Assembly: GCF_900156655.1 (NCBI RefSeq)
Contig: NZ_FTOG01000001.1
Span: forward strand, 372,001-436,000
Direction: 5' to 3'
Length of the DNA: 64,000 nucleotides
From: Rhodobacter aestuarii
Lineage (GTDB): Bacteria; Pseudomonadota; Alphaproteobacteria; Rhodobacterales; Rhodobacteraceae
The notes beneath the pieces are model-generated. The model saw only the letters and a program-made list of their open reading frames with translations, searched no databases and had not been told where the DNA came from. Made by a program: the position numbers and the translations under genes. Shown piece after piece: positions 38,863-53,261 of the stretch (within the stretch, counting starts at the first letter, position 1; every line of letters starts with the position of its first letter).

Positions 38863-38879
38863 CGCTTAGGCGTTAAAGC

Positions 38880-38908
38880 TTGACTCGGCGCACGCCTTAA
38901 GGTAGAAA
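38880..38908 (+). promoter_or_regulatory. Candidate GTA cluster promoter
   Basis: TTGACT and TAGAAA are separated by 17 bases. It is located 113 bases before the g1 ATG and after the mltG terminator, where the promoter of the GTA head-tail operon is expected. Confidence 0.5.
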
Positions 38909-39020
38909 TTTTGCATGCTAGGAGAAGTGGGCAAGCGCCGCGGGGACCCCCGTTGGCGCTTTTTCATTTTGCCCTGCCGGGGGGCGGGTGCGGGCAGCAT
39001 GGGGGCAGGCGAACGATCAG

Positions 39021-39344
39021 ATGAATGGTGAGGTCACAGGTGGGACCGATCCGCCGGCAGATTTGCTGGCGGAAACGGAGGAGTTGTATCGCGCGGTTGC
39101 GGGGGAGTTGGCCGTGGTGATGCGGGGGCTGCGTCAGGGCGAAAAGGCCGATGTGAAGGCGGCTGTGCAGTCAGTCAAAGATCTGCGCGCAGCGTTGCAG
39201 ATGGTGATGGAGGAACGGGGTCGTGTCGAAAAATTGCGCAAGCAAGTGGCCGCAGCCGTGCCAGCAAACGGGCTTGACCTTGCGGCGGCCCGAGATGAGA
39301 TCGGGCGCCGCTTGGCTTGCCTGCGCGACGCCGCGCGACGTTGA
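39021..39344 (+). CDS. GTA g1, terminase small subunit-like protein
   Basis: A 107-residue mainly helical protein with no catalytic motif. Position directly before the large terminase and the Ala/Glu/Arg-rich coiled-coil-like composition match RcGTA g1, the small terminase. In GTA particles this subunit has lost sequence-specific DNA recognition, fitting random packaging. ATG 39021 is chosen over a start 11 codons upstream (GTG 38988) to place the N-terminus at the polar MNGEVTGG. It overlaps g2 by 50 bases. Confidence 0.75.
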   Translation: MNGEVTGGTDPPADLLAETEELYRAVAGELAVVMRGLRQGEKADVKAAVQSVKDLRAALQMVMEERGRVEKLRKQVAAAVPANGLDLAAARDEIGRRLACLRDAARR

Positions 39345-40641
39345 TGCGTTTTTGGGCGGGCTGGGCGAAAACGCACTTTTGGCGCTGCCGTGGCTGTTTG
39401 AGTTTTGGGCGCTGCCGCATCAACTGCCGCCAGTGGGCAGCTGGAAAAGCTGGGTGATCATGGGCGGACGAGGTGCGGGCAAGACCCGTGCCGGGGCGGA
39501 ATGGGTGCGTGCGCAGGTGGAAGGCGCGGGGCCGAAGGATGCCGGGCAGGCGCGGCGTGTGGCGCTCGTTGGGGAGACCTTTGATCAAGTCCGCGAGGTG
39601 ATGATCTTTGGCGAGAGCGGGATCTTGGCCTGTTCGCCGCCCGACCGCCGCCCGGTGTGGGAGGCCACGCGGCGGCGTTTGGTGTGGGAAAATGGTGCGA
39701 CCGCGCAGGCCTTTTCGGCGCAAGAGCCAGAGGCGTTGCGCGGGCCGCAATTTGATGCCGCTTGGGTGGATGAACTCGCCAAATGGAAGAAGGCCGAAGA
39801 GGTTTGGGACATGCTGCAATTTGCGCTGCGGCTGGGGGCGCATCCGCAGCAAGTAATCACCACGACGCCGCGCAACTTGGGGGTGCTGAGGGCGATTTTG
39901 GAGAACCCCTCGACCGTGGTGACCCATGCGCCGACCGAGGCGAACCGGGCCTATTTGGCGCAAAGCTTCTTGGACGAGGTGCAGGCGCGTTATGCGGGCA
40001 CGCGGCTGGGGCGGCAGGAGTTAGAGGGCGTGTTGCTGGACGATGTCGAGGGCGCGCTTTGGACCACGGCCATGCTGGAGGCGGCGCGGGTTGCGCGGGT
40101 GCCGGAATTGGACCGCGTTGTTGTGGCGCTGGACCCGGCGGTGACGGGCGGTGCGAGCGCGGATGAATGCGGGATTGTGGTGGCGGGCGCGGTGACGCGC
40201 GGTCCGGTCTCTGACTGGCGGGCCTATGTTTTGGAGGATGCGAGCGTGCGCGGGCGGCCCACGGATTGGGCACGCGCGGCGATTGCGGCGATGGAGCGTT
40301 GGGGCGCTGAAAAGCTGGTGGCCGAGGTCAACCAAGGCGGTGATCTGATTGAAAGCGTGCTCCGCCAAATCGACCCTTTGGTGCCGTTCAAAGCGTTGCG
40401 CGCGGCGCGGGGCAAGGCGGCGCGGGCGGAGCCTGTCGCGGCGCTTTACGAACAGGGCCGGGTGAAACATTGCCGTGCGGGCGCGCTTGGCACGCTTGAG
40501 GACCAGATGTGCCGCATGACGGTGCAAGGTTACACCGGGCCGGGCTCGCCCGATCGGGTGGATGCGCTGGTGTGGGCGATGACCGAGCTCATTTTGACCC
40601 CCGCCGCGCATTGGCGCCGCCCGCAGGTGCGCGGGCTTTAG
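39295..40641 (+). CDS. GTA g2, terminase large subunit
   Basis: A 448-residue DNA-packaging motor. The Walker A GGRGAGKTRAGAEW lies at residues 57-70, a Walker B-like FDAAWVDELAKWKK around 150-163, and the coupling motif ITTTPRN near 190. The C-terminal nuclease domain has VVALDPAVTGG and the acidic DRVDALVWAM near the end. The ATG at 39295 lies inside g1; the frame is open for another 24 codons, so the exact start is uncertain. A 142-base gap with a terminator separates it from the portal gene. Confidence 0.92.
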   Translation: MRSGAAWLACATPRDVDAFLGGLGENALLALPWLFEFWALPHQLPPVGSWKSWVIMGGRGAGKTRAGAEWVRAQVEGAGPKDAGQARRVALVGETFDQVREVMIFGESGILACSPPDRRPVWEATRRRLVWENGATAQAFSAQEPEALRGPQFDAAWVDELAKWKKAEEVWDMLQFALRLGAHPQQVITTTPRNLGVLRAILENPSTVVTHAPTEANRAYLAQSFLDEVQARYAGTRLGRQELEGVLLDDVEGALWTTAMLEAARVARVPELDRVVVALDPAVTGGASADECGIVVAGAVTRGPVSDWRAYVLEDASVRGRPTDWARAAIAAMERWGAEKLVAEVNQGGDLIESVLRQIDPLVPFKALRAARGKAARAEPVAALYEQGRVKHCRAGALGTLEDQMCRMTVQGYTGPGSPDRVDALVWAMTELILTPAAHWRRPQVRGL

Positions 40642-40650
40642 GCGCGTTGT

Positions 40651-40703
40651 CTTTCATCTTGCCGCAAATATCCCACGGGGGCGCGGGGGTGTGAAACCCC
40701 CGC
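40651..40703 (+). repeat. Extragenic repeat element, copy C
   Basis: CTTTCATCTTGCCGCAAATATCCC followed by GGGGGCGC and a hairpin (CGGGGGT with ACCCCCG, loop GTGAA) lies between g2 and g3. It matches the core of copies A and B. Confidence 0.6.
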
Positions 40704-40733
40704 AGCCTTGGCGGAAATGCGGAAATTCATCTG

Positions 40734-40760
40734 AAAGGCCGGGGTTTGCCCGGCCTTTTT
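40734..40760 (+). terminator. Intrinsic terminator inside the GTA cluster
   Basis: A perfect 10-bp stem (AAAGGCCGGG with CCCGGCCTTT) with a GTTTG loop and a run of five T. It lies between g2 and g3, 24 bases before the portal start, and should stop most transcripts coming from the g1 promoter. Confidence 0.85.
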
Positions 40761-40783
40761 CATGCTGGCCTAAGGGGATGCTG

Positions 40784-41962
40784 ATGGCGTTCAATCTTTT
40801 CCAAAAACCGCGCGTGGCAGCGCCGCCGGAGCGCAAAGCCTCTGTCACCGGGCGGATTGTGGCGCTGGCGGCGGGGGCGGGGCGGCCTGTCTGGGGGCCG
40901 CGCGATAGCGCCAGCCTGACGCGCGCGGGGTTCACCGCCAATCCGGTGGGGTTTCGCGCGGTGAAGCTGATTGCGGAGGCGGGCGCGGCGGTGCCGCTGA
41001 TCTGTGCCGATGCGACGCGCCGCTATGAGGTGCATCCGCTGTTGGATTTGATCGCGCGGCCCAACCCGGGCCAAGGGCGGGCGGAATTGTTTGAGGCGCT
41101 GCTAGGGCAGATTTTGCTTTCCGGCAATGGCTATGTGGAGGCGGTGGCGCAAGAGCCCGGCCTACCGCGCGAATTGCATGTGCTCCGCGCGGATCGGATG
41201 CAAGTGGTGCCGGGGCCGGATGGTTGGCCCGTGGCCTATGATTACGCGGTGGGTGGGCGCAAACATCGCTTTGAGATGACCGGCGCGCCCGATCCGATTT
41301 GTCATATCAAAAGCTTCCACCCTTCTGATGACCATTATGGTCTTTCGCCGATGCAGGCGGCGGCGGTGGCGGTTGAGGTGCATAACGCGGCCAGCGGTTG
41401 GTCCAAGGCGCTGTTGGACAATGCCGCGCGGCCCTCGGGGGCGATTGTCTATACGGGCGCGGATGGGCAAGGCACGCTCAGCCCCGATCAATATGAGCGG
41501 CTGGTGGTGGAGATGGAGACCCATCACCAAGGCGCGCGCAATGCAGGCCGCCCGCTGCTCTTGGAGGGTGGGCTTGATTGGAAGCCGATGGGGTTTAGCC
41601 CCTCGGATATGGAATTTCACGAAACCAAGCTTGCGGCGGCGCGCGAGATTGCCGTGGCCTTTGGTGTGCCGCCGATGCTGTTGGGCATTCCGGGCGAGGC
41701 GACCTATGCGAATTATGCCGAGGCGCATCGGGCGTTTTATCGGCTCACGGTCTTGCCGCTCATTACCCGCGTGGCGGCGGCGCTTTCGTGGTGGCTCTCG
41801 GGCTATTTGGGAGTGCGGGTCACCTTGCGGCCAGATCTGGATCAGATCCCAGCGCTTGCGGGGGAGCGCGATCAGCTTTGGGCGCGGATCAGCCAAGCCA
41901 CGTTTTTGAGCGATGGTGAGAAGCGCCGCCTTTTGGGGTTGCCGCCCGCGCCGGAGGGCTAG
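40784..41962 (+). CDS. GTA g3, portal protein
   Basis: A 392-residue HK97-type portal, the dodecameric ring at the capsid vertex through which DNA enters and leaves. FTANPVGFRAVKLIAEA, the HPLLDLIARPNP motif near residue 85 and MLLGIPGEATYANYAEAHRAF near residue 300 (parts shown) are family signatures. ATG 40784 is six bases after AAGGGG; the ATG at 40778 abuts the site. Confidence 0.93.
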   Translation: MAFNLFQKPRVAAPPERKASVTGRIVALAAGAGRPVWGPRDSASLTRAGFTANPVGFRAVKLIAEAGAAVPLICADATRRYEVHPLLDLIARPNPGQGRAELFEALLGQILLSGNGYVEAVAQEPGLPRELHVLRADRMQVVPGPDGWPVAYDYAVGGRKHRFEMTGAPDPICHIKSFHPSDDHYGLSPMQAAAVAVEVHNAASGWSKALLDNAARPSGAIVYTGADGQGTLSPDQYERLVVEMETHHQGARNAGRPLLLEGGLDWKPMGFSPSDMEFHETKLAAAREIAVAFGVPPMLLGIPGEATYANYAEAHRAFYRLTVLPLITRVAAALSWWLSGYLGVRVTLRPDLDQIPALAGERDQLWARISQATFLSDGEKRRLLGLPPAPEG

Positions 41963-41965
41963 GGC

Positions 41966-42199
41966 ATGGCGACCGGAGGCTCGCGTTACCTCAAGGAGCC
42001 CTTTGCCGCGCATGAGGAGCGGTTGCAGGCGACCGACCGGATTATGGAGCTGCAATTCGCGCATCTGGAGCGGCGGTTGGAGAAGATCGAGGGGCTGATT
42101 GAGCGGCTCGAAAAGCGTTTGTGGGTCAGCGTTTACGGCGTGGTGGCGGTGATCGTGACGCAGGCGGTGCTGGGCATCCTCGACCATGCCCCGAAGTGA
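41966..42199 (+). CDS. GTA g3.5, small coiled-coil membrane protein
   Basis: A 77-residue protein with a charged, heptad-like helix (residues about 20-50, LERRLEKIEGLIERLEKRL) followed by one membrane helix (VSVYGVVAVIVTQAVLGIL). It lies between portal and protease, the place of g3.5 in RcGTA. Its function is not known; a membrane-tethered role in assembly is possible. Three bases separate it from g3. Confidence 0.8.
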   Translation: MATGGSRYLKEPFAAHEERLQATDRIMELQFAHLERRLEKIEGLIERLEKRLWVSVYGVVAVIVTQAVLGILDHAPK

Positions 42200-42209
42200 G
42201 GAAAGCGAT

Positions 42210-42770
42210 ATGGATCAGATGGAAAGCGGGCTTTTGGAGACAGGGCTCGAACATAAGTTTTGCCGCGCCGATGGGCCGATGCAGGTGGAGGGCGGCACCC
42301 AGATCGAGGGTTATGCCAGCCTTTTTGGCACGCCCGACCAAGGCGGCGATGTGGTGCAGCCCGGCGCTTATGCCCGCGCGTTGGAGCGGCTCGCAGAGCA
42401 GGGCGGGCGGGTGAAGATGCTTTGGCAGCATGACCCCGCGCAGCCGATTGGCGTGTGGGACAGCGTCACCGAGGATGCGCGCGGCCTTTACGTCAAGGGG
42501 CGGCTTTTGCCCGAGGTGGCGCGGGCGCGCGAGGCGGCGGCGCTGGTTGCGGCGGGGGCGATTGACGGGCTGTCGATCGGCTATCGCACCTTGCGCGCGC
42601 ATCGCAACGAAAAGGGCGCGCGGCTTTTGGCCGAATTGGAGCTTTGGGAAGTGTCGCTGGTGACCTTTCCGATGTTGCGCGCGGCCAAGGTGGCGGCAAA
42701 GACCCGCGCGCCCTTGCAAGAGCTGGCGGCGGCGTTGCGCGTTGCCACGGCAGAACTGGCGGCGCGCTAG
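42210..42770 (+). CDS. GTA g4, prohead protease
   Basis: A 186-residue HK97-type prohead protease (herpesvirus protease-like fold) that trims the capsid protein during head maturation. IEGYASLFGTPDQGGDVVQPGAY (parts), the catalytic His of MLWQHDPAQPIG near residue 72 and the GLSIGYRT serine motif near 117 are present. Start 42210 follows GAGGAAAG. Confidence 0.92.
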   Translation: MDQMESGLLETGLEHKFCRADGPMQVEGGTQIEGYASLFGTPDQGGDVVQPGAYARALERLAEQGGRVKMLWQHDPAQPIGVWDSVTEDARGLYVKGRLLPEVARAREAAALVAAGAIDGLSIGYRTLRAHRNEKGARLLAELELWEVSLVTFPMLRAAKVAAKTRAPLQELAAALRVATAELAAR

Positions 42771-42797
42771 GCCCGCCGAACCCAAGGAGAGATGGAA

Positions 42798-43988
42798 ATG
42801 AGTGATCAGACATGGGCCGGGGCGGGGCTGCCCCCGGGCCCCGATCCGGCATGGGAAATGCAAGCCGCGCTCGCGGATTTTGTGAAGGAAGTCAAAGGCT
42901 TTCACGAGGAACTTCGGGCCAAGGTGCAACAGCAAGAAGAGCGTGTGACGATGCTGCAAACGAAAACTCTCACCGGGCGTCCCGCCCTTGCGCAAGCTGC
43001 CAGCGAAGAGGCGCCGCACCTGAAAGCCTTTGGGGCCTATGTGCGCCACGGCGATGATGATGGGCTGCGGGCCTTGGCGCTGGAGGGCAAGGCGCTCAAT
43101 ACCGCTGTTTCCGCCGAGGGGGGCTATTTGGTCGATCCGCAAACGGCGGAGACCATTCGCGGGGTGCTGATGGCGACCGCCTCGATCCGGCAGATTGCGA
43201 GCGTGGTGCATGTGGAGGCGAGTTCTTTTGATGTGCTCGTGGATCATTCCGAAATGGGCTCTGGTTGGGCCACGGAAACGGCGAGCCTGACCGAGACGGC
43301 GACGCCGCAGATCGACCGGATCACGATCCCGCTGCATGAGCTTTCGGCGCTGCCCAAGGCGAGCCAGCGGCTGCTCGATGACAGCGCCTTTGATATTGAA
43401 ACTTGGCTGGCGAACCGGATCGCCGACAAATTCGCCCGGGCCGAGGCTTCGGCCTTTATTGCGGGGGATGGGGTCGATAAGCCGACCGGCTTTTTGACCC
43501 ATCCGAAGGTGGCCAACAGCGGCTGGAGTTGGGGCAGCCTTGGCTACATTGCGACCGGGGCGGATGGCGATTTTGCGGCGGTGAATGCCTCGGATGCGGT
43601 GGTCGATCTGGTCTATGCTTTGGGGGCCGAATACCGCGCCCACGCTAGCTTTGTGATGAATTCGAAAACCGCGGGCGCGGTGCGCAAAATGAAAGACGCC
43701 GATGGGCGGTTTTTGTGGTCCGACGGTTTGGCGGCGGGCGAGCCGGCGCGGCTGATGGGCTATCCGGTGCTGATTGCCGAGGACATGCCTGATATTGCCT
43801 CTGGCACCTATGCGCTGGCCTTTGGCGACTTTGCCAATGGCTACACGATTGCCGAGCGGCCCGAATTGCGGGTGCTGCGCGACCCGTTCTCGGCCAAGCC
43901 GCATGTGCTCTTTTACGCCTCCAAACGTGTGGGCGGCGATGTGAGCGATTTTGCGGCGATCAAGCTGTTGAAATTTGCCACCGCCTAA
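42798..43988 (+). CDS. GTA g5, major capsid protein
   Basis: A 396-residue HK97-fold major capsid protein forming the head shell. An N-terminal helical region (residues 1 to about 95) is the scaffold-like part removed by g4; the mature shell protein would start near residue 95-105. Signatures include GGYLVDPQTAETI, ASVVHVEASSFDVLV and FYASKRVGGDV. ATG 42798 is used because an earlier ATG (42792) abuts the AAGGAGAG site. A hairpin follows the stop. Confidence 0.94.
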   Translation: MSDQTWAGAGLPPGPDPAWEMQAALADFVKEVKGFHEELRAKVQQQEERVTMLQTKTLTGRPALAQAASEEAPHLKAFGAYVRHGDDDGLRALALEGKALNTAVSAEGGYLVDPQTAETIRGVLMATASIRQIASVVHVEASSFDVLVDHSEMGSGWATETASLTETATPQIDRITIPLHELSALPKASQRLLDDSAFDIETWLANRIADKFARAEASAFIAGDGVDKPTGFLTHPKVANSGWSWGSLGYIATGADGDFAAVNASDAVVDLVYALGAEYRAHASFVMNSKTAGAVRKMKDADGRFLWSDGLAAGEPARLMGYPVLIAEDMPDIASGTYALAFGDFANGYTIAERPELRVLRDPFSAKPHVLFYASKRVGGDVSDFAAIKLLKFATA

Positions 43989-43997
43989 GGGCGGCGC

Positions 43998-44020
43998 GGG
44001 GTCGGGCCTGGCCCGGCCCC
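43998..44020 (+). repeat. Hairpin after the GTA capsid gene
   Basis: GGGGTCGGGC pairs with GCCCGGCCCC (one G-T pair) around a 3-base loop. No T run follows, so it is not a canonical terminator; it may protect the 3' end of capsid mRNA. Confidence 0.5.
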
Positions 44021-44050
44021 AAGGTTTGGGCGTGGTGCGGAGGGTGTTTC

Positions 44051-44647
44051 ATGGTGTTGACCGAAGGGGCGCCGGTGGCCGAGGCGGTGCTGCCGGTGGC
44101 GGAATTTCGCGATCATTTGCGGCTGGGGCGCGGCTTTGCCGATGTAGGGGCGGAAGATGCGGCGCTGGTGGGCTATTTGCGCGCGGCTTTGGCGGCAATT
44201 GAGGGGCGCACGGCAAAAGCCTTGTTGGCGCGGGCGTTTACGCTGAGCCTGCCGCGCTGGCGCTGGGGGGATATGCAAACATTGCCGATTGCGCCGGTTT
44301 CTGCTGTGGCAGAGCTGCGGTTGATTGACAGCGCCGGGGCGGTGAGCGTGGCGGACCGGGCCAGTTGGCGGCTGGTGCAGGATATGGCGCGGCCCCGGCT
44401 TGTGGCGGTGGGGGCTTTGCTGCCGCGCATCCCGACAGATGGCCGCGTTGAGGTGGCCTTTACGGCAGGCTTTGGCCCGGCTTGGGCGGATCTGCCGGTG
44501 GACCTTGCCCAAGCGGTCTTTTTGCTGGCCGCGCAATATTTTGAGTTTCGCCATGACAGCGCGGGTGACGGCGCGGGAATGCCCTTTGGCGTGAGTGCCT
44601 TGATTGAGCGCTGGCGCACGGTGCGGGTATTGGGGGGCGGCGCATGA
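44051..44647 (+). CDS. GTA g6, head-tail connector
   Basis: A 198-residue protein of the phage gp6-like connector family (helical, DNA-packaging/adaptor), with LRDHLRLGRG-like N-terminal helix (FRDHLRLG near residue 20), EGRTAKALLARAFTL near 58 and DLPVDLAQAVFLLAAQYFE near 150. It sits beneath the portal in the particle neck. Its stop overlaps the next start (ATGA). Confidence 0.88.
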   Translation: MVLTEGAPVAEAVLPVAEFRDHLRLGRGFADVGAEDAALVGYLRAALAAIEGRTAKALLARAFTLSLPRWRWGDMQTLPIAPVSAVAELRLIDSAGAVSVADRASWRLVQDMARPRLVAVGALLPRIPTDGRVEVAFTAGFGPAWADLPVDLAQAVFLLAAQYFEFRHDSAGDGAGMPFGVSALIERWRTVRVLGGGA

Positions 44648-44982
44648 GCCTGCCCGATTTCAACCATGAATTGGTGCTGGAGGAGGCGGTGCGCCTGCCC
44701 GATGGCGCGGGGGGTTATGCGCTTGGCTGGCAGCCCTTGGGCACGCTTTGGGCGGCGCTGCGGGCGGGCACCGGGGCGGCGCGCGGTGGCGAGGCCGTGA
44801 CGCTGGCCTCGGTGCCCTACAAGGTCGTGGTGCGGGCCGCGCCTGTGGGCAGCCCGCGCCGCCCCAAGCCCGCGCAACGGTTTCGCGATGGCACCCGTGT
44901 CTTTGGCATTTTGGCGGTGGCCGATGATGACCCGCAGGGCCGCACGCTGACCTGTTTCGTGCGTGAGGAGGTGGCGGCATGA
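44644..44982 (+). CDS. GTA g7, head-tail adaptor (stopper)
   Basis: A 112-residue beta-rich head-closure protein with YALGWQPLGTLWAAL and the C-terminal GRTLTCFVREE typical of phage head-tail joining proteins (gp16/SPP1-like). Overlaps g6 and g8 by four bases on each side. Confidence 0.85.
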   Translation: MSLPDFNHELVLEEAVRLPDGAGGYALGWQPLGTLWAALRAGTGAARGGEAVTLASVPYKVVVRAAPVGSPRRPKPAQRFRDGTRVFGILAVADDDPQGRTLTCFVREEVAA

Positions 44983-45386
44983 GCTATGCGATTGCGGCTG
45001 CGTTGCAGGCGGCGATTTATGCGCGGCTTACAGAGGATGCGGCGCTGAGCGCGCTGGTGGGCGGGGCGATTTATGATGCGGTGCCCCCCGGCCCGGTGTC
45101 GGGGCCTTATGTGAGCCTTGGGCCGGAAAGCGTGCGCGATGCCTCAGACGCGACGGGCGCGGGGGCGGCGCATGATTTCACCCTCTCGGTCATTTCCGAT
45201 GCGGCGGGCTTCGCAGGCCTCAAAGCTGTGGCGGGTGCGGTGTCTGACGCGCTTTTGGGCAGCGATCTGGTGCTGGCCCAAGGGCATCTGGTTGGGCTGT
45301 GGTTTTTGCGCGCCCGCGCGCGGCGGGTCGAGAAAGCGCAGACCCGGCGCATTGATTTGACCTTTCGCGCCCGCGTGGCGGGCTGA
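44979..45386 (+). CDS. GTA g8, tail terminator protein (DUF3168)
   Basis: A 135-residue DUF3168-type tail completion protein that caps the tail tube and joins it to the head. ALQAAIYARLTEDAAL at the N-terminus, VPPGPVSGPYVSLG near residue 38 and the C-terminal Arg-rich RRIDLTFRARV are characteristic. Confidence 0.9.
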   Translation: MSYAIAAALQAAIYARLTEDAALSALVGGAIYDAVPPGPVSGPYVSLGPESVRDASDATGAGAAHDFTLSVISDAAGFAGLKAVAGAVSDALLGSDLVLAQGHLVGLWFLRARARRVEKAQTRRIDLTFRARVAG

Positions 45387-45413
45387 GGTCGTTTTCACCC
45401 AAAGGAGAGAAAG

Positions 45414-45827
45414 ATGGCGGCGCAAAATGGCAAGGATCTGTTGATTAAGCTCGATCTGAGCGGGGCGGGGCAGTTTGAAACCATTGCGGGGCTGCGCGCG
45501 ACGCGGATCAGCTTCAATGCGGAAACGGTGGATGTGACCTCGCTTGAAAGCCAAGGCGGTTGGCGGGAGCTGCTGGCGGGGGCGGGGGTGCGCTCGGCCA
45601 GCCTATCGGGGGCGGGGGTGTTCAAGGATGCGGGCACCGATGAACGCGCGCGGCAGGTGTTTTTTGACGGTGAGAAGCCCGATTTTCAGGTGATTATCCC
45701 CGATTTTGGCGTGGTCGAGGGGCCGTTCATGATCTCCGCGATTGAGTATGCGGGCAGCCATAATGGCGAGGCGCGTTTTGAATTGGCGATGGCCTCGGCG
45801 GGCGCGCTGCGGTTCACGGCGCTTTGA
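45414..45827 (+). CDS. GTA g9, major tail protein
   Basis: A 137-residue tail-tube protein (TP901-1-like) forming the ring stack of the short tail. GKDLLIKLD, the AETVDVTSLESQGGWRELL segment near residue 38 and FELAMASAGALRF at the C-terminus are typical. It has the strong AAAGGAGAG ribosome binding site expected for a major structural gene. Confidence 0.92.
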   Translation: MAAQNGKDLLIKLDLSGAGQFETIAGLRATRISFNAETVDVTSLESQGGWRELLAGAGVRSASLSGAGVFKDAGTDERARQVFFDGEKPDFQVIIPDFGVVEGPFMISAIEYAGSHNGEARFELAMASAGALRFTAL

Positions 45828-45828
45828 C

Positions 45829-46152
45829 ATGGCGAACCCTTGGGCTGGTGAGGTGGAGGTGGTTCTGGGCGGCAAGCCGTGGGCGGCGAAGCTGACGCTT
45901 GGGGCTTTGGCGGAACTGGAGGCGGAGCTTGGCGAGGCGAGCCTTTTGGATTTGGTCGCGCGGTTTGAAAGCGGGGCATTTTCGGCGCGTGATGTCTTGG
46001 CGCTTTTGGTGGCGGGGTTGCGCGGCGGCGGCTGGGAGGGACGGGCCGAGGATTTGCGCAAGGTGGAGATTGCGGGCGGTCCGTTGGTGGCGGCGCGGCT
46101 TGCGGCGCAGTTGCTTGCACGCGCCTTCACCCTGCCTGAGCCGCCGAGTTGA
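45829..46152 (+). CDS. GTA g10, gene transfer agent family tail assembly chaperone
   Basis: A 107-residue protein beginning MANPWAGEVEVVLGG with a mostly helical remainder including LTLGALAELEAELG. This is the conserved GTA g10 family, a tail assembly chaperone-like protein made before the tape measure. The start is one base after the g9 stop. Confidence 0.88.
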   Translation: MANPWAGEVEVVLGGKPWAAKLTLGALAELEAELGEASLLDLVARFESGAFSARDVLALLVAGLRGGGWEGRAEDLRKVEIAGGPLVAARLAAQLLARAFTLPEPPS

Positions 46153-46166
46153 GATGGCAGCCTGAC

Positions 46167-46382
46167 ATGGCGGAGAAGTTGGATTGGCCCGGAATGCTGC
46201 GGGCGGGGTTGCAGGGGTTGCACCTGCGGCCTGCGGAGTTTTGGGCGCTGAGCCCGGCGGAACTGGCCTTGATGCTGGGCGCGACGGGGCAGGGCGGGGC
46301 GCTGAGCCGCGCGGGGTTGGCGGCTTTGGCCAAACGCTGGCCCGATACCCCGGCGAAAGGAGAGAAAAATGGTGGAGATTGA
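46167..46382 (+). CDS. GTA g10.1, small phage tail assembly chaperone
   Basis: A 71-residue protein with DWPGMLRAGLQGLHLRPAEFWALSPAEL (parts), the pattern of the Phage_TAC_6/rcc01693 family. In many phages the two chaperones come from one gene by frameshifting; here they are two reading frames 14 bases apart. Its 3' end overlaps the putative original start of g11 at 46369. Confidence 0.87.
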   Translation: MAEKLDWPGMLRAGLQGLHLRPAEFWALSPAELALMLGATGQGGALSRAGLAALAKRWPDTPAKGEKNGGD

Positions 46383-46434
46383 GGGCTTTGAGAGCTGGAG
46401 CGCGCCTTGGGCGGGGCCGAGGGGATGGCGGTGA
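46369..46434 (+). other. Displaced 5' end of g11 (21-codon frame)
   Basis: An ATG at 46369 follows an AAGGAGAG site at ideal spacing, but its frame encodes only 21 residues (MVEIEGFESW...) and stops at 46434. After the eighth codon the neighbouring frame continues as ELERALGGAEGM into g11, so one missing base near 46390-46395 would explain it. The stop overlaps the internal g11 ATG, so reinitiation could still give a slightly shortened product. Confidence 0.55.
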
Positions 46435-47006
46435 GTTTTAGCGGCGAGCTTGCCCGGATGCGCGAGAGCCTGACCTATACTGGGCGCGAGGTGGGCACGC
46501 TCTCGCACAGCCTTGGGCGCAGTTTGAAGCGCGCCTTTGATGGTGTGGTTCTTGACGGGGGGACGCTTTCGGATGCTTTGGGGCAGGTGGCCGAGAGCCT
46601 GTCGCGCACGGCCTATGCGGTGGCGATGCGCCCGGTGCAAGAGGCTGTGGGCGGGGCGCTGGCCACTGGGTTGAACGGGCTCTTCGGCGGCGTGTTCCCG
46701 TTTGAAAAAGGTGGGGCCTTTAGCGCGGGGCAGGTTTTGCCCTTTGCCAAAGGGGGCGTGGTGAGTGCGGCCACGACTTTCCCCTTGCGGGGTGCCACTG
46801 GGCTGATGGGCGAGGCGGGGCCGGAGGCGATTTTGCCGCTGGCACGTAGCGCAGACGGGCGGCTTGGGGTGCAAGCCGGGGGCGGGCGCGCGGTCAATGT
46901 GGTGATGCATGTTTCCACGCCCGATGCGGCGGGCTTTGCGCGGTCTTCAAGCCAGATCGCGCAGCAAATCAACCGCGCTTTGGCGCGTGGGCAACGCAAT
47001 GCGTAA
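46425..47006 (+). CDS. GTA g11, short tail tape measure protein
   Basis: A protein of 193 residues from ATG 46425 that sets tail length and fills the tube. It has FSGELARMRESLTYTGREV at the N-terminus (parts), RAFDGVVLDGGTLSDAL, hydrophobic helices near residues 70-85, and GLMGEAGPEAILPLARSADGRLGV and VNVVMHVSTPDAAGF (parts), all typical of GTA g11. The frame is open upstream to 46392 and reads LERALGGAEG before this ATG, which suggests the true N-terminus was longer. Ribosome binding at 46425 itself is poor. Confidence 0.85.
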   Translation: MAVSFSGELARMRESLTYTGREVGTLSHSLGRSLKRAFDGVVLDGGTLSDALGQVAESLSRTAYAVAMRPVQEAVGGALATGLNGLFGGVFPFEKGGAFSAGQVLPFAKGGVVSAATTFPLRGATGLMGEAGPEAILPLARSADGRLGVQAGGGRAVNVVMHVSTPDAAGFARSSSQIAQQINRALARGQRNA

Positions 47007-47015
47007 GGGGGCGAG

Positions 47016-47648
47016 ATGGCTTTTCACGCGGTGAGATTTCCCGCCAATCTGAGCTTTGGCTCGGTGGGTGGGCCGGAGCGGCGAACCGAAATTGTGACGT
47101 TGGCAAGCGGGTTTGAAGAACGCAACAGCCCCTGGGCCCATGCGCGGCGGCGCTATGATGCGGGGGTGGGGCTACGGTCTTTGGATGATGTGGAGCGCTT
47201 GATTGCGTTTTTTGAGGCGCGCGGCGGGCAGCTCCACGGCTTTCGCTGGAAGGATTGGGCCGATTACAAAAGCTGTGCGGCCTCGATGCAGCCGGGCTAT
47301 GAAGACCAGTTTTTGGGCTTGGGCGATGGGGTGAGCCGCCGGTTTCAATTGCGCAAGCTTTATAGCTCGGGCGGTGTGGACTATTGGCGCCCGATCACCA
47401 AGCCCGTGGCGGGGACGGTGCTCGCGGGCGTGCAGGGCGACCACCAAGCCGAAGAGGCGCAGTTCACGCTGGAGTTGGAAAGCGGCGGGGTGGTGTTTCA
47501 CACCGCGCCGGGGGCGGGCGCGCGGATCACGGCGGGGTTTGAGTTTGATGTGCCAGTGCGGTTTGACACTGACCGGATCGCGGTTTCTGTGCAGTCGTTC
47601 CAAGCGGGGGATGTGCCGCAGGTGCCGGTGGTGGAGCTGCGGGTCTGA
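47016..47648 (+). CDS. GTA g12, distal tail protein (DUF2460)
   Basis: A 210-residue DUF2460 protein forming the distal end of the tail. FHAVRFPANLSFGSVGGPERRTEIV (parts) at the N-terminus, HGFRWKDWADYKS near residue 76 and VDYWRPITKPV near 125 are characteristic. Its stop overlaps the g13 start by one base. Confidence 0.92.
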   Translation: MAFHAVRFPANLSFGSVGGPERRTEIVTLASGFEERNSPWAHARRRYDAGVGLRSLDDVERLIAFFEARGGQLHGFRWKDWADYKSCAASMQPGYEDQFLGLGDGVSRRFQLRKLYSSGGVDYWRPITKPVAGTVLAGVQGDHQAEEAQFTLELESGGVVFHTAPGAGARITAGFEFDVPVRFDTDRIAVSVQSFQAGDVPQVPVVELRV

Positions 47649-48535
47649 TGGCGTTTTCTGCGGAATTTCAGGCGCATCTGGCAAGCGGCAATACCACGGT
47701 GGCGCGGGCTTGGGCGGTGGTGCGCCGCGATGGGTTGGTGTTGGGCTTTACCGACCATGACCAAGCCTTGGTCTTTGAAGGGGTTCGCTTTGCGCCTGAG
47801 AGTGGCTTGAGCGCGCGGGCCTTGGTGCAGGGCACGGGGCTGTCGATTGATAATAGCGAAAGTTATGGCGCGCTGCGCTCCGAGGCGATCACCGAGGCCG
47901 ATCTTTTGGCGGGGCGCTATGACGGGGCGGAGGTGCGGATTTGGCTGGTGAATTGGGCCGATATCACGCAGCGCGCTTTGATCTTTCGTGGCCATATCGG
48001 GGAGGTCACGCGCGGGGCCGGGGCCTTTGCGGCGGAGTTGCGCGGGCTGACGGAAGCTTTGGGGCAGGAGCAAGGGCGGATCTATCATTCGCGCTGTGCG
48101 GCCGTGCTGGGGGATGCGCGCTGCGGCTTTGATGTGGGCACCAATGGCTATGCGCTGAGCGCTGCGCTGGCGCAGGTGAACACAGGCGGGTTCGTGGTGA
48201 CCGAGGGCGCGGGGTTTGAAGACCGCTGGTTTGAAAAGGGCCTTGTGGTGGTGCAATCGGGCGCGGCTTCGGGGCTGGTGGGTCTTGTGAAGACCGATCG
48301 GCTTTTGGCCGATGGCACGCGGCAGGTGGCGCTGTGGCAAGAGTTGGGAGCGCCGCTTGCCGTGGGGGATGTGCTGCAGCTTGCGCCCGGCTGTGACAAG
48401 CGGGCCGAGACGTGCCGGCTCAAATTCGACAATTTCGCGAATTTCCGGGGCTTTCCGCACATTCCGGGCGAGGATTGGCTGATGTCCTACCCTGTGCCCT
48501 CGGGGGCGAATGACGGGGGGAGCCTGTTCAGATGA
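47648..48535 (+). CDS. GTA g13, tail hub protein (DUF2163, iron-sulfur-type cysteines)
   Basis: A 295-residue DUF2163/BR0599-family protein of the baseplate hub. It contains several cysteines in the C-terminal half (HSRCAAVLGDARCGF near residue 150, GCDKRAETCRLKF near 255) and FRGFPHIPGEDW near the C-terminus. RcGTA g13 carries an iron-sulfur cluster held by such cysteines. Overlaps g14 by four bases (ATGA). Confidence 0.92.
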   Translation: MAFSAEFQAHLASGNTTVARAWAVVRRDGLVLGFTDHDQALVFEGVRFAPESGLSARALVQGTGLSIDNSESYGALRSEAITEADLLAGRYDGAEVRIWLVNWADITQRALIFRGHIGEVTRGAGAFAAELRGLTEALGQEQGRIYHSRCAAVLGDARCGFDVGTNGYALSAALAQVNTGGFVVTEGAGFEDRWFEKGLVVVQSGAASGLVGLVKTDRLLADGTRQVALWQELGAPLAVGDVLQLAPGCDKRAETCRLKFDNFANFRGFPHIPGEDWLMSYPVPSGANDGGSLFR

Positions 48536-48978
48536 ACGAGATCGGAGCGCGGGCGGTGGCCGAGGCGCGGCTGTGGCTTGGCACGCCCTATCTGCATCAG
48601 GCGAGTGTGCGGGGCGCGGGGGCGGATTGTCTGGGGCTGTTGCGCGGGGTCTGGCGTGCGCTTTACGGGGGCGAGCCGGAGCCCGTGCCAGCCTATAGCG
48701 CGGATTGGTCTGAGCCGAGCGGGCAAGAGGCGTTATGGGCGGCGGCGCAAAGGCATTTGCGGCCCTTGCCGGGGCTTTTGGTGCAAGCGCCCGGAGAGGT
48801 GCTCTTGTTTCGGATGCGCGCGGGATCTGTGGCGAAACATTTGGGTATCGTCTCGGCAACCGGGGCGCAGGCGCGGTTTGTGCATGCCTATAGCGGGCAT
48901 GGGGTGGTGGAAAGCCCGCTCGCGGCGCCTTGGGCGCGGCGGATTGTGGCGCGGTTTGCCTTTCCGGAAAGGGCGTGA
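48532..48978 (+). CDS. GTA g14, NlpC/P60 cell wall peptidase
   Basis: A 148-residue peptidase with the NlpC/P60 triad: C33 in GADCLGLL, H103 in AKHLGIVS and a downstream polar residue near H119. It is thought to open peptidoglycan during DNA delivery. WLGTPYLHQASVRG before the cysteine is the usual N-terminal context. Three bases separate it from g15. Confidence 0.93.
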   Translation: MNEIGARAVAEARLWLGTPYLHQASVRGAGADCLGLLRGVWRALYGGEPEPVPAYSADWSEPSGQEALWAAAQRHLRPLPGLLVQAPGEVLLFRMRAGSVAKHLGIVSATGAQARFVHAYSGHGVVESPLAAPWARRIVARFAFPERA

Positions 48979-48981
48979 GCG

Positions 48982-51900
48982 ATGGCGACATTGGTTTTGG
49001 GCGCGGCGGGGGCGGCGCTGGGCGCGGGCTTTGGCGGTTCTGTGTTGGGGCTTTCGGGCGCGGTGATTGGGCGTGCGGTGGGGGCGACGCTGGGGCGGGT
49101 GATTGACCAGCGCTTGCTGGGGGCGGGTTCGCAAGCGGTCGAGACGGGTCGGGTGGAGCGGTTGCGGCTGACGAGCGCGAGCGAGGGTGCGCCGGTGGGG
49201 CGGCTTTGGGGCCGGATGCGGGTGGCGGGGCAGGTGATTTGGGCCACGCGGTTTGCGGAAACCGCGACGGTGCAGAAATCCGGCAAGGGCAGCCCGCGCA
49301 GCACCACGACCGGTTACAGCTATTCGGTGAGCCTTGCGCTGGCACTATGCGAGGGGGAGATTTTGCGCGTCGGCCGGATTTGGGCCGATGGCAGCGAGAT
49401 CGCGCGCGATAGCCTGAACCTACGCATTTACACCGGGGGTGAGGATCAACTGCCCGACCCGAAGATTGCCGCCGTCGAGGGGGCGGAGAAAGCGCCGGCC
49501 TATCGCGGCATTGCTTATGTGGTGATCGAGGATCTGGCGCTTGGCCCCTATGGCAATCGGGTGCCGCAATTCACCTTTGAGGTGGTGCGGGCCGCGCAAG
49601 GGTCGGCGCTGGGGGATGTGCCCGATTTGACGCGGGGCGTGCAGGCGGTGGCCTTGATCCCCGGCACGGGGGAATATGCGCTGGCGACGGAGCCCGTTTA
49701 CCTGAGTTCTGGGGCGTCTTTTGTGGATGGTGTGGCACACGAGGTGGCGAACCAAAGCGCGCCGGGGGGCGGGAGTGATTTCGCCCAGTCGTTAGAGCGG
49801 CTGGGGGAAGAGCTTCCGGCCTGTCAGGCGGTGTCTTTGGTGGTGAGTTGGTTTGGCTCTGACCTGCGCTGTGGGGCGTGCAGGCTGCGCCCCAAGGTAA
49901 CGGCGGCGGAGCGTGATGGCACCAATATGCCGTGGCGCGTGGCGGGGGAGACGCGTACGACGGCGGCGTTGGTGCCACGCGATGAGGCGGGCAACTCGGT
50001 CTATGGGGGCACGCCTGCCGATGCCTCGGTCTTGCAGGCGATTGCGGCGCTGAAGGCGGCGGGGCAGGCGGTGACGTTTTACCCGTTTATCTTGATGGAT
50101 CAGTTGGCGGGGAACCGTTTGCCCAACCCCTATACGGGTACGCTTGGCCAGCCTGCTTTGCCGTGGCGCGGGCGGATCACGCTGAACGTGGCCCCCGAAC
50201 GCGATGGCTCGCCCGATGGCAGCGAAGACGCGACGGCGCAGGTGGCGGCGTTTTTTGGCGCGGCGCGGGCGGGTGATTTTGCGGTAAGTGGCGGGGAGGT
50301 GGTTTACACCGGGGCCGAGGATTGGGGCCTGCGCCGCTTTGTGCTGCATTACGCGCATTTATGCGCCTTGGTAGGCGGGGTGGAGGCGTTTTGCATTGGC
50401 TCTGAACTGGTTGCGCTGACGCGGGTGCGGGGGGAGGTAAACAGCTTCCCGGCGGTGGAGCAGCTTATTGCGCTGGCCGCTGAGGTACGCGCGGTTTTGG
50501 GGCCTGATTGCAAGATCAGCTATGCGGCGGATTGGTCGGAATATGCGGGCTATGCGACGGGCAATGGGGATCGGTTCTTTCAGCTTGATGCGCTTTGGGC
50601 CGATGACAACATCGATTTCATCGGGATCGACAATTACCTGCCGCTGTCGGATTGGCGGGATGGTGAAGAGCATGCCGATGCCGATTGGGGGGCGATTTAC
50701 AATCTGGATTACTTGCGCGCCAATATCGAGGGCGGTGAGCTTTATGATTGGTATTACGCAGGGGAGGCGCATCGCGCGGCGCAGATCCGCACGCCGATTA
50801 CCGATGGCGCGCAGGAGGAACCGTGGATTTGGCGGGCGAAAGACATCCGCAGCTTTTGGGACAAGGCGCATTATGAGCGGGTGGGGGGTGTAAGGGCTGC
50901 GACGCCCACCGCTTGGGTGCCGCGTTCCAAGCCGATTTGGTTCACCGAATTTGGGTGTGCCGCCGTTGATAAGGGCACGAACCAGCCCAATGTGTTTTTG
51001 GACCCGAAAAGTTCGGAAAGTGGGGTGCCTTATTTTTCGGATGGGCGGCGGGATGAGTTGATCCAGATGCAATATCTGCGCGCGATCTTGGGCTATTTGG
51101 GGGATGCGGCGCGCAACCCGGTGTCAGAGCTTTATGGCGGGCCGATGGTGGATATGGCGCGCGCCCATGTTTGGGCGTGGGATGCGCGGCCTTGGCCGCA
51201 GTTTCCGGCGCGCAGTGATTTGTGGGCGGATGGGGAGAACTACGCGCGCGGGCATTGGATTTCGGGGCGGGCCGTTTCTCAGCCTTTGGCGGCGGTGGTG
51301 GGGGAGATTTGCGCCACAGCCGGGATCGAGGCCGTAGATGTGGCCAAGCTTTACGGGCTGGTGCGCGGTTTCACGATGGGAGAGGGCGAGACCGGGCGTG
51401 CGGGGCTGCAAGCACTGATGCTGGGGTATGGGGTGGAAGCGGTGGAGCGCGATGGGCAGTTGGTGTTTGCGATGCGCGATGGCAAGAGCGTTGCGACATT
51501 GACCCCTGATCATTTGGCGCTGGGCGAGAGTGATAGAAGCGTGGAAACCATCCGCGCGGCACAGGCGGAAATCGCGGGGCGGGTACGGCTGGCCTATGTG
51601 GAGGCCGATGGCGATTTTGAGGCCCGCGCGGTGGAGGCGATTTTCCCTGATGAAGCGGGCGGCGCGGCCACGGGCTCTGAATTGCCGCTGGCATTGACGC
51701 GGGCGGAGGCACAGGGGCTGGCGCAGCGGTGGCTGTCTGAAGCGCGGGTGGCGCGCGATACGGCGCGGTTTGCCTTGCCGCTGTCGCTCGCGCATCTGGG
51801 GCCGGGGGATGTGGTGACGCTCGATCTGCCCGAAGGGGCGCGGCGCTATCGGCTCGACCGGGTGGAACGCGCGGGGGCGCTGGAGGTGGAGGCGGTGCGG

Positions 51901-52905
51901 GTGGAGCCAGGCGTTTACACCCCCGGTGATGAGGCGGAGGAGGGGGCCGTGCTGGCCCCCTTTGCTGCGCCGGTGCCGGTGGGGGCGGTGTTTCTGGACC
52001 TGCCTTTGATGCGCGGGGATGAAGACCCGATCGCCCCGCATTTGGCCGTGTCTGCGGTGCCTTGGCCCGGTACTGTGGCGGTCTATGCCGGGCAAGAGGA
52101 TGCGGGTTATACGCTCAACACCACGCTTTCTGCGCGCGCGGTCTTGGGGCAGAGCCTTTCGCCGCTGCATCGCGCCGCGCCGGGGCTTTTGGATCGGGGC
52201 GCGCCTTTGCGGGTGAAGTTGGCGACGGGGGCACTCGAAAATGCTGCGCTGGAAGGCGTGCTCAATGGTGCGAACCTGATGGCGATTGGCGATGGCACGT
52301 CTGACAATTGGGAGTTGTTGCAATTTGCCGAGGCCGTGCCGGTGGCCGAAGGCGTGTGGGAGATTTCGCAGCGCTTACGTGGGCAGTTGGGCACCGATGC
52401 GCTGATGCCCGAGGTCTGGCCCGAGGGGAGCGTTGTGGTGCTGCTCGATGGCGCACCGGAACAGATTAGCCTTGCGCCCTCGGCCCGGGGTTTGGCGCGG
52501 CACTACCGGATTGGATCGGCTGCGCGGCCCTATGATGACCCGTCTTACACCCACCGAGTGGAGGCCTTTACGGGCGCTGGGCTGCGGCCCCTCAGCCCGT
52601 GCCATTTGCGTGCTGACGCCGCAGCGGCGGGCTGGGGCTTCACTTGGGTGCGCCGCACCCGTGTCGATGGGGATAGCTGGGCGGGCTATGAGGTGCCCTT
52701 GGGCGAGGCGCAGGAGTTGTATTTGCTGCGCGTGGTGCACGATGGGGCGATCAAGCGGGAGGTGACCTTGGGGGAGGCTGCTTGGACCTATCCGAGCGCG
52801 CTTCAGGTAGCGGATGGGGTTGCGGGCGCGTTTGCGGTTTCGGTCGCGCAAATTTCGGACAGTTACGGGCCGGGGCTGGCGGCGCAGATCACCGTGGGCG
52901 GGTGA
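48982..52905 (+). CDS. GTA g15, megatron/host-contact tail protein
   Basis: A 1307-residue protein, the largest GTA component. It begins with a Gly/Ala-rich hydrophobic segment (AAGAALGAGFGGSVLGLSGA) probably used for membrane insertion during DNA entry. The middle (about residues 430-760) resembles a glycoside hydrolase TIM-barrel, with FIGIDNYLPLSDWRD and IWFTEFGCAAVDKG containing candidate acidic catalytic residues. A phage tail protein domain follows. Full length fits RcGTA g15. Ends with TGATG overlap into the next gene. Confidence 0.93.
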   Translation: MATLVLGAAGAALGAGFGGSVLGLSGAVIGRAVGATLGRVIDQRLLGAGSQAVETGRVERLRLTSASEGAPVGRLWGRMRVAGQVIWATRFAETATVQKSGKGSPRSTTTGYSYSVSLALALCEGEILRVGRIWADGSEIARDSLNLRIYTGGEDQLPDPKIAAVEGAEKAPAYRGIAYVVIEDLALGPYGNRVPQFTFEVVRAAQGSALGDVPDLTRGVQAVALIPGTGEYALATEPVYLSSGASFVDGVAHEVANQSAPGGGSDFAQSLERLGEELPACQAVSLVVSWFGSDLRCGACRLRPKVTAAERDGTNMPWRVAGETRTTAALVPRDEAGNSVYGGTPADASVLQAIAALKAAGQAVTFYPFILMDQLAGNRLPNPYTGTLGQPALPWRGRITLNVAPERDGSPDGSEDATAQVAAFFGAARAGDFAVSGGEVVYTGAEDWGLRRFVLHYAHLCALVGGVEAFCIGSELVALTRVRGEVNSFPAVEQLIALAAEVRAVLGPDCKISYAADWSEYAGYATGNGDRFFQLDALWADDNIDFIGIDNYLPLSDWRDGEEHADADWGAIYNLDYLRANIEGGELYDWYYAGEAHRAAQIRTPITDGAQEEPWIWRAKDIRSFWDKAHYERVGGVRAATPTAWVPRSKPIWFTEFGCAAVDKGTNQPNVFLDPKSSESGVPYFSDGRRDELIQMQYLRAILGYLGDAARNPVSELYGGPMVDMARAHVWAWDARPWPQFPARSDLWADGENYARGHWISGRAVSQPLAAVVGEICATAGIEAVDVAKLYGLVRGFTMGEGETGRAGLQALMLGYGVEAVERDGQLVFAMRDGKSVATLTPDHLALGESDRSVETIRAAQAEIAGRVRLAYVEADGDFEARAVEAIFPDEAGGAATGSELPLALTRAEAQGLAQRWLSEARVARDTARFALPLSLAHLGPGDVVTLDLPEGARRYRLDRVERAGALEVEAVRVEPGVYTPGDEAEEGAVLAPFAAPVPVGAVFLDLPLMRGDEDPIAPHLAVSAVPWPGTVAVYAGQEDAGYTLNTTLSARAVLGQSLSPLHRAAPGLLDRGAPLRVKLATGALENAALEGVLNGANLMAIGDGTSDNWELLQFAEAVPVAEGVWEISQRLRGQLGTDALMPEVWPEGSVVVLLDGAPEQISLAPSARGLARHYRIGSAARPYDDPSYTHRVEAFTGAGLRPLSPCHLRADAAAAGWGFTWVRRTRVDGDSWAGYEVPLGEAQELYLLRVVHDGAIKREVTLGEAAWTYPSALQVADGVAGAFAVSVAQISDSYGPGLAAQITVGG

Positions 52906-53261
52906 TGCGCGCGATTTTGATCGATGATCTGATGGCTGCGGCGCGGGCCGTGGTGCTGGTGGCGCCCGCGCGACAAAGCGAGACTTTGGCGTGCTGGTTG
53001 GAGCAGGCGCATGCCGCGGATCTCTATCGTAAGCGCTTGGGAAAGCTGCATCCCGCTTGGGGCAATGGTGCGCTGGGCGGGCGGGCGCGATGTGAGCCGC
53101 TTTACCATCCGCGCTATTACGACGGGTGGCGGCTTGAAGCGCTTGGTATGGTGCTTGCTGCAATACAGGTATGGCGTCGGCGGGGGTTTAACCTGCCGCG
53201 CCCTTCCCCTATCTGGGGCGAGACCTATGTGATAGGATCGTCCGAAGCGAAGGAGCCGCCT
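52905..53261 (+). CDS. GTA-adjacent small protein (rcc01699/DUF7742-like), stop codon lost
   Basis: Starting at an ATG overlapping the g15 stop, about 90 residues resemble the small protein usually found right after g15: MRAILIDDLMAAARAVV, YRKRLGKLHPAWGNG near residue 42 and VLAAIQVWRRRG near 86. No stop follows; the frame continues through about 30 unrelated-looking residues straight into cysE at 53262. One additional G in the run at 53182-53186 would give TAA at once, so a base loss in a homopolymer is the likely cause. Its function in GTA production is unknown. Confidence 0.65.

What the first reader, a model, noticed from the sequence alone, without database searches (positions are those of the whole stretch)
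39021..52905. Complete RcGTA-like gene transfer agent cluster with g3.5 and g10.1
All head-tail genes are present and, apart from the g11 start, open and of normal length, with the conserved mltG and cysE flanks. Established knowledge: RcGTA-type clusters of this order make particles that package random host DNA. The sequence shows no integrase, repressor or replication gene. Inference: the strain can, or until recently could, make GTA particles.
Basis: partly seen in the sequence, partly recalled or inferred. Interest (0 to 1): 0.7.

Follow-up and report, generated by a model that had tools for sequence, protein, structure and literature searches.

The report
Gene-transfer agent with damaged tail gene
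This is a known kind of virus-derived gene set with which some bacteria make particles that carry pieces of their own DNA to neighbours; here it is nearly complete and well kept, but a small deletion removes the normal start of the gene that sets the tail's length.

Summary
Window 39021-52905 carries g1-g15 of an RcGTA-type gene transfer agent in canonical order, with mltG upstream and g16-cysE downstream; GTA-specific models match, and the 17 products align to the R. capsulatus cluster at 62-89% identity. The promoter block is conserved. The same genome holds gafA, endolysin-holin, tspA, a probable tail fibre, and comEC and dprA family matches; a ghsB search found only a prophage gene. The cluster is a member of a known kind.

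The correction concerns g11 (tape measure). Its ATG (46369) and ribosome site survive, but a loss of 22 nt relative to relatives ends that frame after 21 codons. All 76 distinct relatives that could be read keep an in-frame start. Restart at TTG46407, ATG46425 or GTG46431 would give 199, 193 or 191 residues; 72 of 74 relatives measured have 213-226. "Complete" is therefore too strong: particle production is probably ancestral and recent, and now probably impaired, unless the deletion is an assembly error or a restart works.

The parts
37641..38792 (+). mltG (YceG family), conserved upstream neighbour
   Evidence: Pfam YceG E 9.3e-81
38870..38939 (+). conserved GTA promoter block (TTGACT, GTAGA, CATGCTAGGAG), 82-151 nt upstream of g1
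   Evidence: alignment of 17 upstream regions, window included; published GafA binding 75-125 nt upstream of g1 in R. capsulatus (PMC9638019, passage)
39021..39344 (+). g1, small terminase, 107 aa
   Evidence: 69% identical to R. capsulatus g1; no family model matched
39295..40641 (+). g2, large terminase (start uncertain)
   Evidence: Terminase_6N/6C; 89% to R. capsulatus
40784..41962 (+). g3, portal
   Evidence: Phage_portal E 6e-86
41966..42199 (+). g3.5, GTA head formation protein
   Evidence: NCBIfam NF048001 E 6e-32
42186..42770 (+). g4, prohead protease (start 42186 or 42210)
   Evidence: Peptidase_S78 E 2e-31
42792..43988 (+). g5, major capsid
   Evidence: Phage_capsid; PDB 6tb9 Rcc01687 E 4e-213
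44051..44647 (+). g6, head-tail connector
   Evidence: TIGR02215 E 4e-45
44644..44982 (+). g7, stopper
   Evidence: Phage_HCP
44979..45386 (+). g8, tail terminator
   Evidence: Tail_completion_gp17
45414..45827 (+). g9, tail tube
   Evidence: Phage_tail_2 E 9e-47
45829..46152 (+). g10
   Evidence: Phage_TAC_11 (GTA-gp10) E 1.5e-27
46149..46382 (+). g10.1, tail assembly chaperone (start 46149 or 46167)
   Evidence: Phage_TAC_6 E 4e-22
46369..46434 (+). remnant of the g11 start: ATG with strong ribosome site, 21 codons, stop; 22 nt shorter than most relatives between ATG and the codon for residue 21
46407..47006 (+). g11 body, tape measure; candidate restarts TTG46407 (199 aa), ATG46425 (193 aa), GTG46431 (191 aa, overlaps the leader stop as GTGA)
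   Evidence: NF058675 model positions 21-219 of 220
47016..47648 (+). g12, distal tail
   Evidence: DUF2460, TIGR02217
47648..48535 (+). g13, baseplate hub
   Evidence: TIGR02218
48532..48978 (+). g14, NlpC/P60 peptidase
   Evidence: TIGR02219
48982..52905 (+). g15, megatron
   Evidence: GTA_TIM E 5e-148; NF048004 1840 bits
52905..53261 (+). g16 (DUF7742), stop lost, frame runs into cysE
53262..54080 (+). cysE (counterpart of R. capsulatus cysE1), own ribosome site kept
   Evidence: SATase_N; SD energy -7.8

Best explanation
An RcGTA-type gene transfer agent locus in a genome of the genus that holds Rhodobacter capsulatus (shown). In R. capsulatus such a locus is switched on by GafA, builds small tailed particles filled with host DNA, and releases them by endolysin-holin lysis (established there, inferred here). 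In this genome the tape measure gene g11 carries a deletion of 22 nt just after its start codon (shown in the assembly). Ribosomes that load at the normal site stop after 21 codons, so full-length tape measure cannot be made by ordinary translation. Most likely outcome (inferred): head, packaging and lysis genes work, while tail assembly is impaired or depends on inefficient restart that gives an N-terminally shortened tape measure. The strain was a producer until recently and is now a poor producer or non-producer.
For: Gene content and order; conserved promoter block; gafA, endolysin, holin and tspA 75, 70, 77 and 69% identical to R. capsulatus; DUF2793 protein with a pyocin-fibre-like end; comEC and dprA family matches. 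Purifying selection: omega 0.072-0.319 for the 16 head-tail genes compared with L003, g11 body 0.144; g11 has 4 amino acid changes on this branch against 7 on the sister branch, so no sign of long decay. Deletion: ATG46369 to the codon of residue 21 is 38 nt against 60 in most relatives; 76 of 76 distinct readable relatives keep an in-frame start there.
Against: The deletion rests on one assembly: the only second copy found, IMG/VR contig L117, is 100% identical over 9,991 nt and is probably the same data. GTG46431 has a ribosome site nearly as good as the normal one (-7.3 against -7.8 kcal/mol) and overlaps the leader's stop, and none of the 43 invariant columns of the protein lies in the lost residues, so a working shortened protein is not excluded. 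Over the 16 genes the window branch has 113 amino acid changes against 84 on the L003 branch (sums), which could hint at relaxation, but flanking mltG shows 17 against 7. A ghsB search found only a prophage gene; 15 of 18 genomes of the genus have no ghsB match at all.
Confidence: 0.5

Rival explanations
1. The g11 deletion is an assembly or sequencing error, or arose in culture; the species has an intact, working GTA.
For: The other head-tail frames are open and under purifying selection; no readable relative shows the deletion; no independent second genome of the species was found.
Against: A clean 22-nt loss in unique sequence is not a typical homopolymer error (general knowledge); the contig is 686 kb long and the genome is rated 100% complete with 0.12% contamination.
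Confidence: 0.22
2. The shortened tape measure is made by termination-reinitiation at ATG46425 or GTG46431 and works; the particle has a shorter tail.
For: GTGA overlap with the leader stop, good ribosome site; lost residues carry 0 of 43 invariant columns; no relaxation in the g11 body. Restart loses 26 or 28 helical residues, 39 or 42 A at 1.5 A per residue (textbook rise), close to the published disc pitch of 38.3 A (PMC7296036, passage).
Against: 72 of 74 relatives measured hold the length within 213-226 residues; the other two are L068 (270, normal start, longer at the other end) and L074 (stop after 28 codons). The 150 best rows (matches in 314 of 394 family genomes) all lie in open frames of at least 217 aa, though that list is sorted by score and so favours full-length genes. 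No translation data.
Confidence: 0.16
3. A GTA on the way to loss: g11 is null and the lineage is a non-producer that may still receive DNA (a cheater).
For: Broken start; g16 stop also lost; comEC and dprA families kept. Pseudogenised clusters as recent cheaters are discussed in PMC10883770 (passage).
Against: No other head-tail frame is broken; gafA, lysis and tspA genes are open; g16 deletion had no significant effect in R. capsulatus (PMC9552610, passage).
Confidence: 0.3
4. An ordinary prophage rather than a GTA.
For: IMG/VR lists g1-g14 of this locus as a viral contig; single genes have phage homologues (capsid: 582 phage records, all below 60% identity, 47.7% the highest of the 20 rows shown).
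Against: GTA-specific models, conserved site between mltG and cysE, no phage integration or replication family among 10 flanking ORFs tested, no att-like repeats in the list.
Confidence: 0.01

Closest known systems
   Same: Same 17 genes, 62-89% protein identity; gafA, endolysin-holin and tspA counterparts. Neighbours g16 and cysE1 as published (PMC9552610, passages).
   Different: g11 start deleted by 22 nt; g16 in one frame with cysE; no GTA-type ghsB found.
GTA clusters of Rhodobacter sp. TJ_12 (L003) and R. maris JA276 (L008)
   Same: Nearest relatives found; capsid 87 and 83% identical.
   Different: Both have an open g11 start.
Prophage-like stretch on contig C12 of the same genome
   Same: Products 53, 42, 49 and 43% identical to g12, g13, g14 and g15, and a DUF2793 fibre.
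   Different: Has an 813-aa tape measure and its own phage context; not part of the GTA.

Membership tests
RcGTA-type gene transfer agent | Head-tail cluster g1-g15 in canonical order | tested here: met
RcGTA-type gene transfer agent | GTA-specific protein families (megatron, RcGTA tape measure, g3.5) | tested here: met
   NF048004, NF058675, NF048001 above curated cut-offs
RcGTA-type gene transfer agent | Fixed chromosomal place, no integration or replication module | tested here: met
   mltG and cysE flanks; none of 10 flanking ORFs tested matches an integration or replication family; no att-like repeats in the list; not every ORF of the window was tested
RcGTA-type gene transfer agent | GafA regulator and its promoter | tested here: met
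   DUF6456 protein of 371 aa, 75% to R. capsulatus; conserved promoter block; binding itself not testable here
RcGTA-type gene transfer agent | Dedicated endolysin-holin | tested here: met
   NF040573 endolysin, GTA_holin_3TM
RcGTA-type gene transfer agent | Tailspike tspA near lysS | tested here: met
   69% to R. capsulatus, near lysS
RcGTA-type gene transfer agent | Tail fibre (rcc00171, DUF2793) | tested here: inconclusive
   DUF2793 protein with pyocin-fibre-like end on C14; no match in R. capsulatus 160-200 kb, where I had guessed rcc00171 to lie
RcGTA-type gene transfer agent | Head spikes ghsA/ghsB (accessory, not defining) | tested here: not met
   ghsB query hits only a prophage tail module, 41%; match in 3 of 18 genus genomes, this one included; ghsA not searched
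RcGTA-type gene transfer agent, functional producer | All structural genes translatable at normal length | tested here: not met
   g11 start
RcGTA-type gene transfer agent, functional producer | Particles with about 4 kb random host DNA that transfer markers | not testable with these tools
   needs culture
Temperate phage (prophage) | Integrase, repressor, replication genes, att sites at the locus | tested here: not met
   10 flanking ORFs only

The most novel reading that the evidence does not exclude
A natural tape-measure experiment: the deletion, with coupled restart at ATG46425 or GTG46431, shortens the N-terminal helix of the tape measure by 26-28 residues (39-42 A), about one tail-tube disc (38.3 A), so this strain would make working particles with four discs where RcGTA has five. 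Of 74 relatives measured, 72 lie within 13 residues (about half a disc) of each other; none of the 76 readable ones has a comparable loss at the start.
Probability: 0.1. Interest if true: 0.5.

Novelty: new member of a known kind. Interest (0 to 1): 0.24.

Why it matters
As a GTA cluster it is ordinary: 290 of 394 genomes drawn from the family have a tape measure gene above the model's cut-off. Its small value lies in g11. If the deletion is real it catches a well-kept GTA at, or just after, the loss of one gene, which bears on how producer and cheater lineages turn over; if a restart works it gives a clean test of the tape-measure rule in a very short tail.

Tried and rejected
Prophage reading: rejected. 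Programmed -1 frameshift from leader to body: no canonical slippery heptamer was seen by eye between 46392 and 46434; not computed. RNA structure around the g11 start: weaker than shuffles (z +1.87; 197 of 200 shuffles fold at least as well), so no evidence for a structured control element. Independent copy of the species: one IMG/VR contig matched, 100% identical; its name carries what I recall to be an IMG genome number, so it is taken as the same genome. Pfam PF12218 for tspA: no match in the genome; tspA was then found through lysS and R. capsulatus. A PDB search with the tspA product gave only weak beta-helix hits. The tail fibre has no tblastn match at 1e-5 in R. capsulatus 160-200 kb, so its orthology stays open. 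ghsB was sought with the RcapMu protein that matches Rcc01080 in the PDB; two other phage proteins gave no PDB hit. AlphaFold model of the R. capsulatus tape measure: mean pLDDT 56, pTM 0.27; a helix over residues 4-69 (block pLDDT 63-81) agrees with the published 113-residue helix but is weak evidence; no fold search was made. In the alignment the window row has gaps at the N-terminus, so invariant columns were recounted without it. That alignment used 36 of 37 loci that I chose (L077 dropped, no ATG; lengths limited to 190-250); the lengths were later measured without that limit on 74 of 76 relatives (L077 no ATG, L079 runs off its contig), which added the two outliers L068 and L074. Literature: in the rows listed for three searches (15 of 47, 12 of 169 and 8 of 9 papers) no title or abstract start speaks of a shortened or frameshifted GTA tape measure; open-access library only, not read further for this.
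Full report
What is there. The window is G000:C19:372001-436000 of a 3.84-Mb genome in 31 contigs, rated 100% complete, in a genus whose members include R. capsulatus, R. maris and Sinirhodobacter records. ORFs and protein models give g1-g15 in canonical order at 39021-52905. Models specific to GTAs match above cut-off: g3.5 NF048001, tape measure NF058675, megatron NF048004. The capsid matches the solved RcGTA capsid Rcc01687 at E 4e-213; in 582 phage records it stays below 60% identity, 47.7% being the highest of the 20 rows shown. Against the R. capsulatus cluster, taken from genome G002, all 17 products align at 62-89% identity. G002 is read as strain SB1003 because its chromosome has 3,738,958 bases (recalled figure) and holds an RcapMu protein at 100% identity.

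Relatives. One scan of named genomes gave 511 confirmed stretches, of which the best 80 loci were kept. In 80 of 80 the genes that are hit lie in the window's order, and 62 of 80 have hits to all 17; 18 lack one or more, in most cases on short contigs. L058 (strain QY30) is the clear exception: 8 of 17 genes give no hit on a 21-kb stretch and several others are partial. The upstream region of the window and 16 relatives shares a block with TTGAC and, with small differences, the string CATGCTAGGAGAAGTGGGCAAGCG, 82-151 nt before g1. Published work places GafA binding 75-125 nt before g1 in R. capsulatus (PMC9638019, passages seen).

Accessory loci in the same genome. gafA: C19:667501-668616, 371 aa, DUF6456, 75% identical to the R. 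capsulatus protein. Lysis: endolysin of 203 aa (NF040573) and holin of 163 aa (GTA_holin_3TM), C11:233643-234736, 70 and 77%. tspA: C16:46978-49356, 792-aa frame, 763 aa from an internal Met, 69% identical; lysS is nearby, as published for tspA, whose product ends at residue 763 (PMC13420450, sections 5 and 7 read). Tail fibre: C14:16330-17445, DUF2793 N-terminus and a C-terminus like an F2-pyocin side fibre; DUF2793 is the published GTA tail fibre family (PMC10883770, passage), but I found no R. capsulatus counterpart at the place I had guessed. ComEC- and DprA-family proteins are present. A ghsB homologue occurs only inside a prophage tail module on C7 at 41% identity, and ghsB has a match in 3 of 18 genomes of the genus, this one included; ghsA was not searched.

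The g11 start. The window keeps an ATG at 46369 behind AAAGGAGAGAAAA, almost the same site as before g9, but that frame ends after 21 codons at 46432-46434. The g11 body is open from 46392. Relatives have 12-26 residues between the start and the leucine that aligns with TTG46407, 20 in 43 of 74; the window has 38 nt there instead of 60, a loss of 22 nt. Of 98 loci examined, 7 had no g11 match, 2 were partial, and 89 could be read, including the window's own copy L096. One of the 76 (L074) has a stop inside the body. In the genus search 17 of 18 genomes have a g11 match; the one without is 81% complete. So the loss is private to this genome among those examined. In a sample of 394 genomes of the family, 314 match the tape measure model; the 150 rows shown all have open frames of at least 217 aa (counted by hand), but that list is ordered by score and the window's own match is not in it.

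What the loss does. Restart at TTG46407, ATG46425 or GTG46431 would give 199, 193 or 191 residues. Of 74 relatives measured, 72 have 213-226; L068 has 270 with a normal start, so it is longer at the other end, and L074 stops after 28. In 36 of these, residues 1-28 hold none of 43 invariant columns; their mean conservation is 0.59 against 0.70 and 0.81 for the two later parts. GTG46431 overlaps the leader stop as GTGA, and its ribosome site scores -7.3 kcal/mol against -7.8 for the leader, -5.8 for ATG46425 and -5.6 for TTG46407; the best quarter of 300 random start triplets in the cluster lies at -6.0 or lower. Termination-reinitiation at such overlaps is described in print (PMC6728339 and PMC10666635, search listing only). 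In RcGTA a trimer of the tape measure fills the tube, its N-terminal part is a 113-residue helix, and the tail has five tube discs with 38.3 A pitch (PMC7296036, section 18 read, passages). Loss of 26 or 28 helical residues equals 39 or 42 A, about one disc. This is arithmetic, not evidence of function.

Selection. Against L003, omega (NG86) is 0.072-0.319 for the 16 genes g1-g14 with g3.5 and g10.1, g11 body 0.144, flanking fabF 0.031 and mltG 0.129; g15 could only be compared with L008, 0.189. Amino acid changes on the window branch against the L003 branch sum to 113 against 84 over the 16 genes: 4/7 for g11, 3/8 for g2 and g14, but 11/3 for g6, 11/5 for g3, 12/6 for g4 and 15/9 for g13. Flanking mltG shows 17/7 and fabF 0/4, so a general difference in rate may explain part of this. 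No formal test was run.

Judgement. The locus is a member of the RcGTA kind; membership is near certain. Whether it works is open. I hold a real g11 lesion with impaired tail assembly at about 0.5, an error or culture artefact at 0.22, a null and decaying system at 0.3 as a harsher form of the main reading, and a working shortened tape measure at 0.16; these overlap and do not sum to one.

Noticed in passing
52905-54080: g16 has lost its stop codon by a small deletion relative to L008 and L009, so g16 and cysE form one open frame of 391 codons; cysE keeps its own ribosome site.
   Followed up: partly
38988-48978; L117: IMG/VR holds g1-g14 of this GTA, 100% identical over 9,991 nt, as viral contig IMGVR_UViG_2740891822_000002: a GTA filed as a virus.
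   Followed up: partly
39021-52905: Coding strand of the GTA genes is strongly G- and T-rich at third positions (GC skew 0.336 against 0.053 in 7 flanking plus-strand genes and -0.057 in 7 minus-strand genes); the R. capsulatus cluster shows the same, 0.307.
   Followed up: partly
L088, L089 (C12:32001-58462): Prophage-like stretch with baseplate proteins 42-53% identical to g12-g15, among them a 1321-aa megatron-like protein, and a 641-aa DUF2793 fibre.
   Followed up: partly
L126, L127 (C7:about 185-204 kb): Another prophage-like stretch, with terminase, tail genes and a protein like the RcGTA head spike fibre GhsB.
   Followed up: partly
L095 (C18:70001-90000): Phage-like stretch with a terminase and a second GTA_holin_3TM protein.
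   Followed up: no
L090 (C15:247036-248100): A weak portal-family match below the curated cut-off; no PHROG match at 1e-8.
   Followed up: no
L092:5085-9445: The probable tail fibre gene follows a 1045-aa RTX-repeat protein whose N-terminal half is 53% identical to an R. capsulatus RTX protein; an RTX-like protein is the published repressor of RcGTA (PMC10218006, passage). The link was not tested.
   Followed up: no
L012, L028, L036, L038, L054 and others, near the end of the locus: In at least 31 of the 80 named loci a DUF2793 fibre gene is hit, mostly at a place just behind g15; in the window it is not there.
   Followed up: no
L058; L068; L074: GTA cluster of strain QY30 (L058) looks heavily degraded; g11 of Nioella ostreopsis (L068) is 270 codons long; g11 of a Pseudorhodobacter MAG (L074) has a stop after 28 codons.
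   Followed up: no
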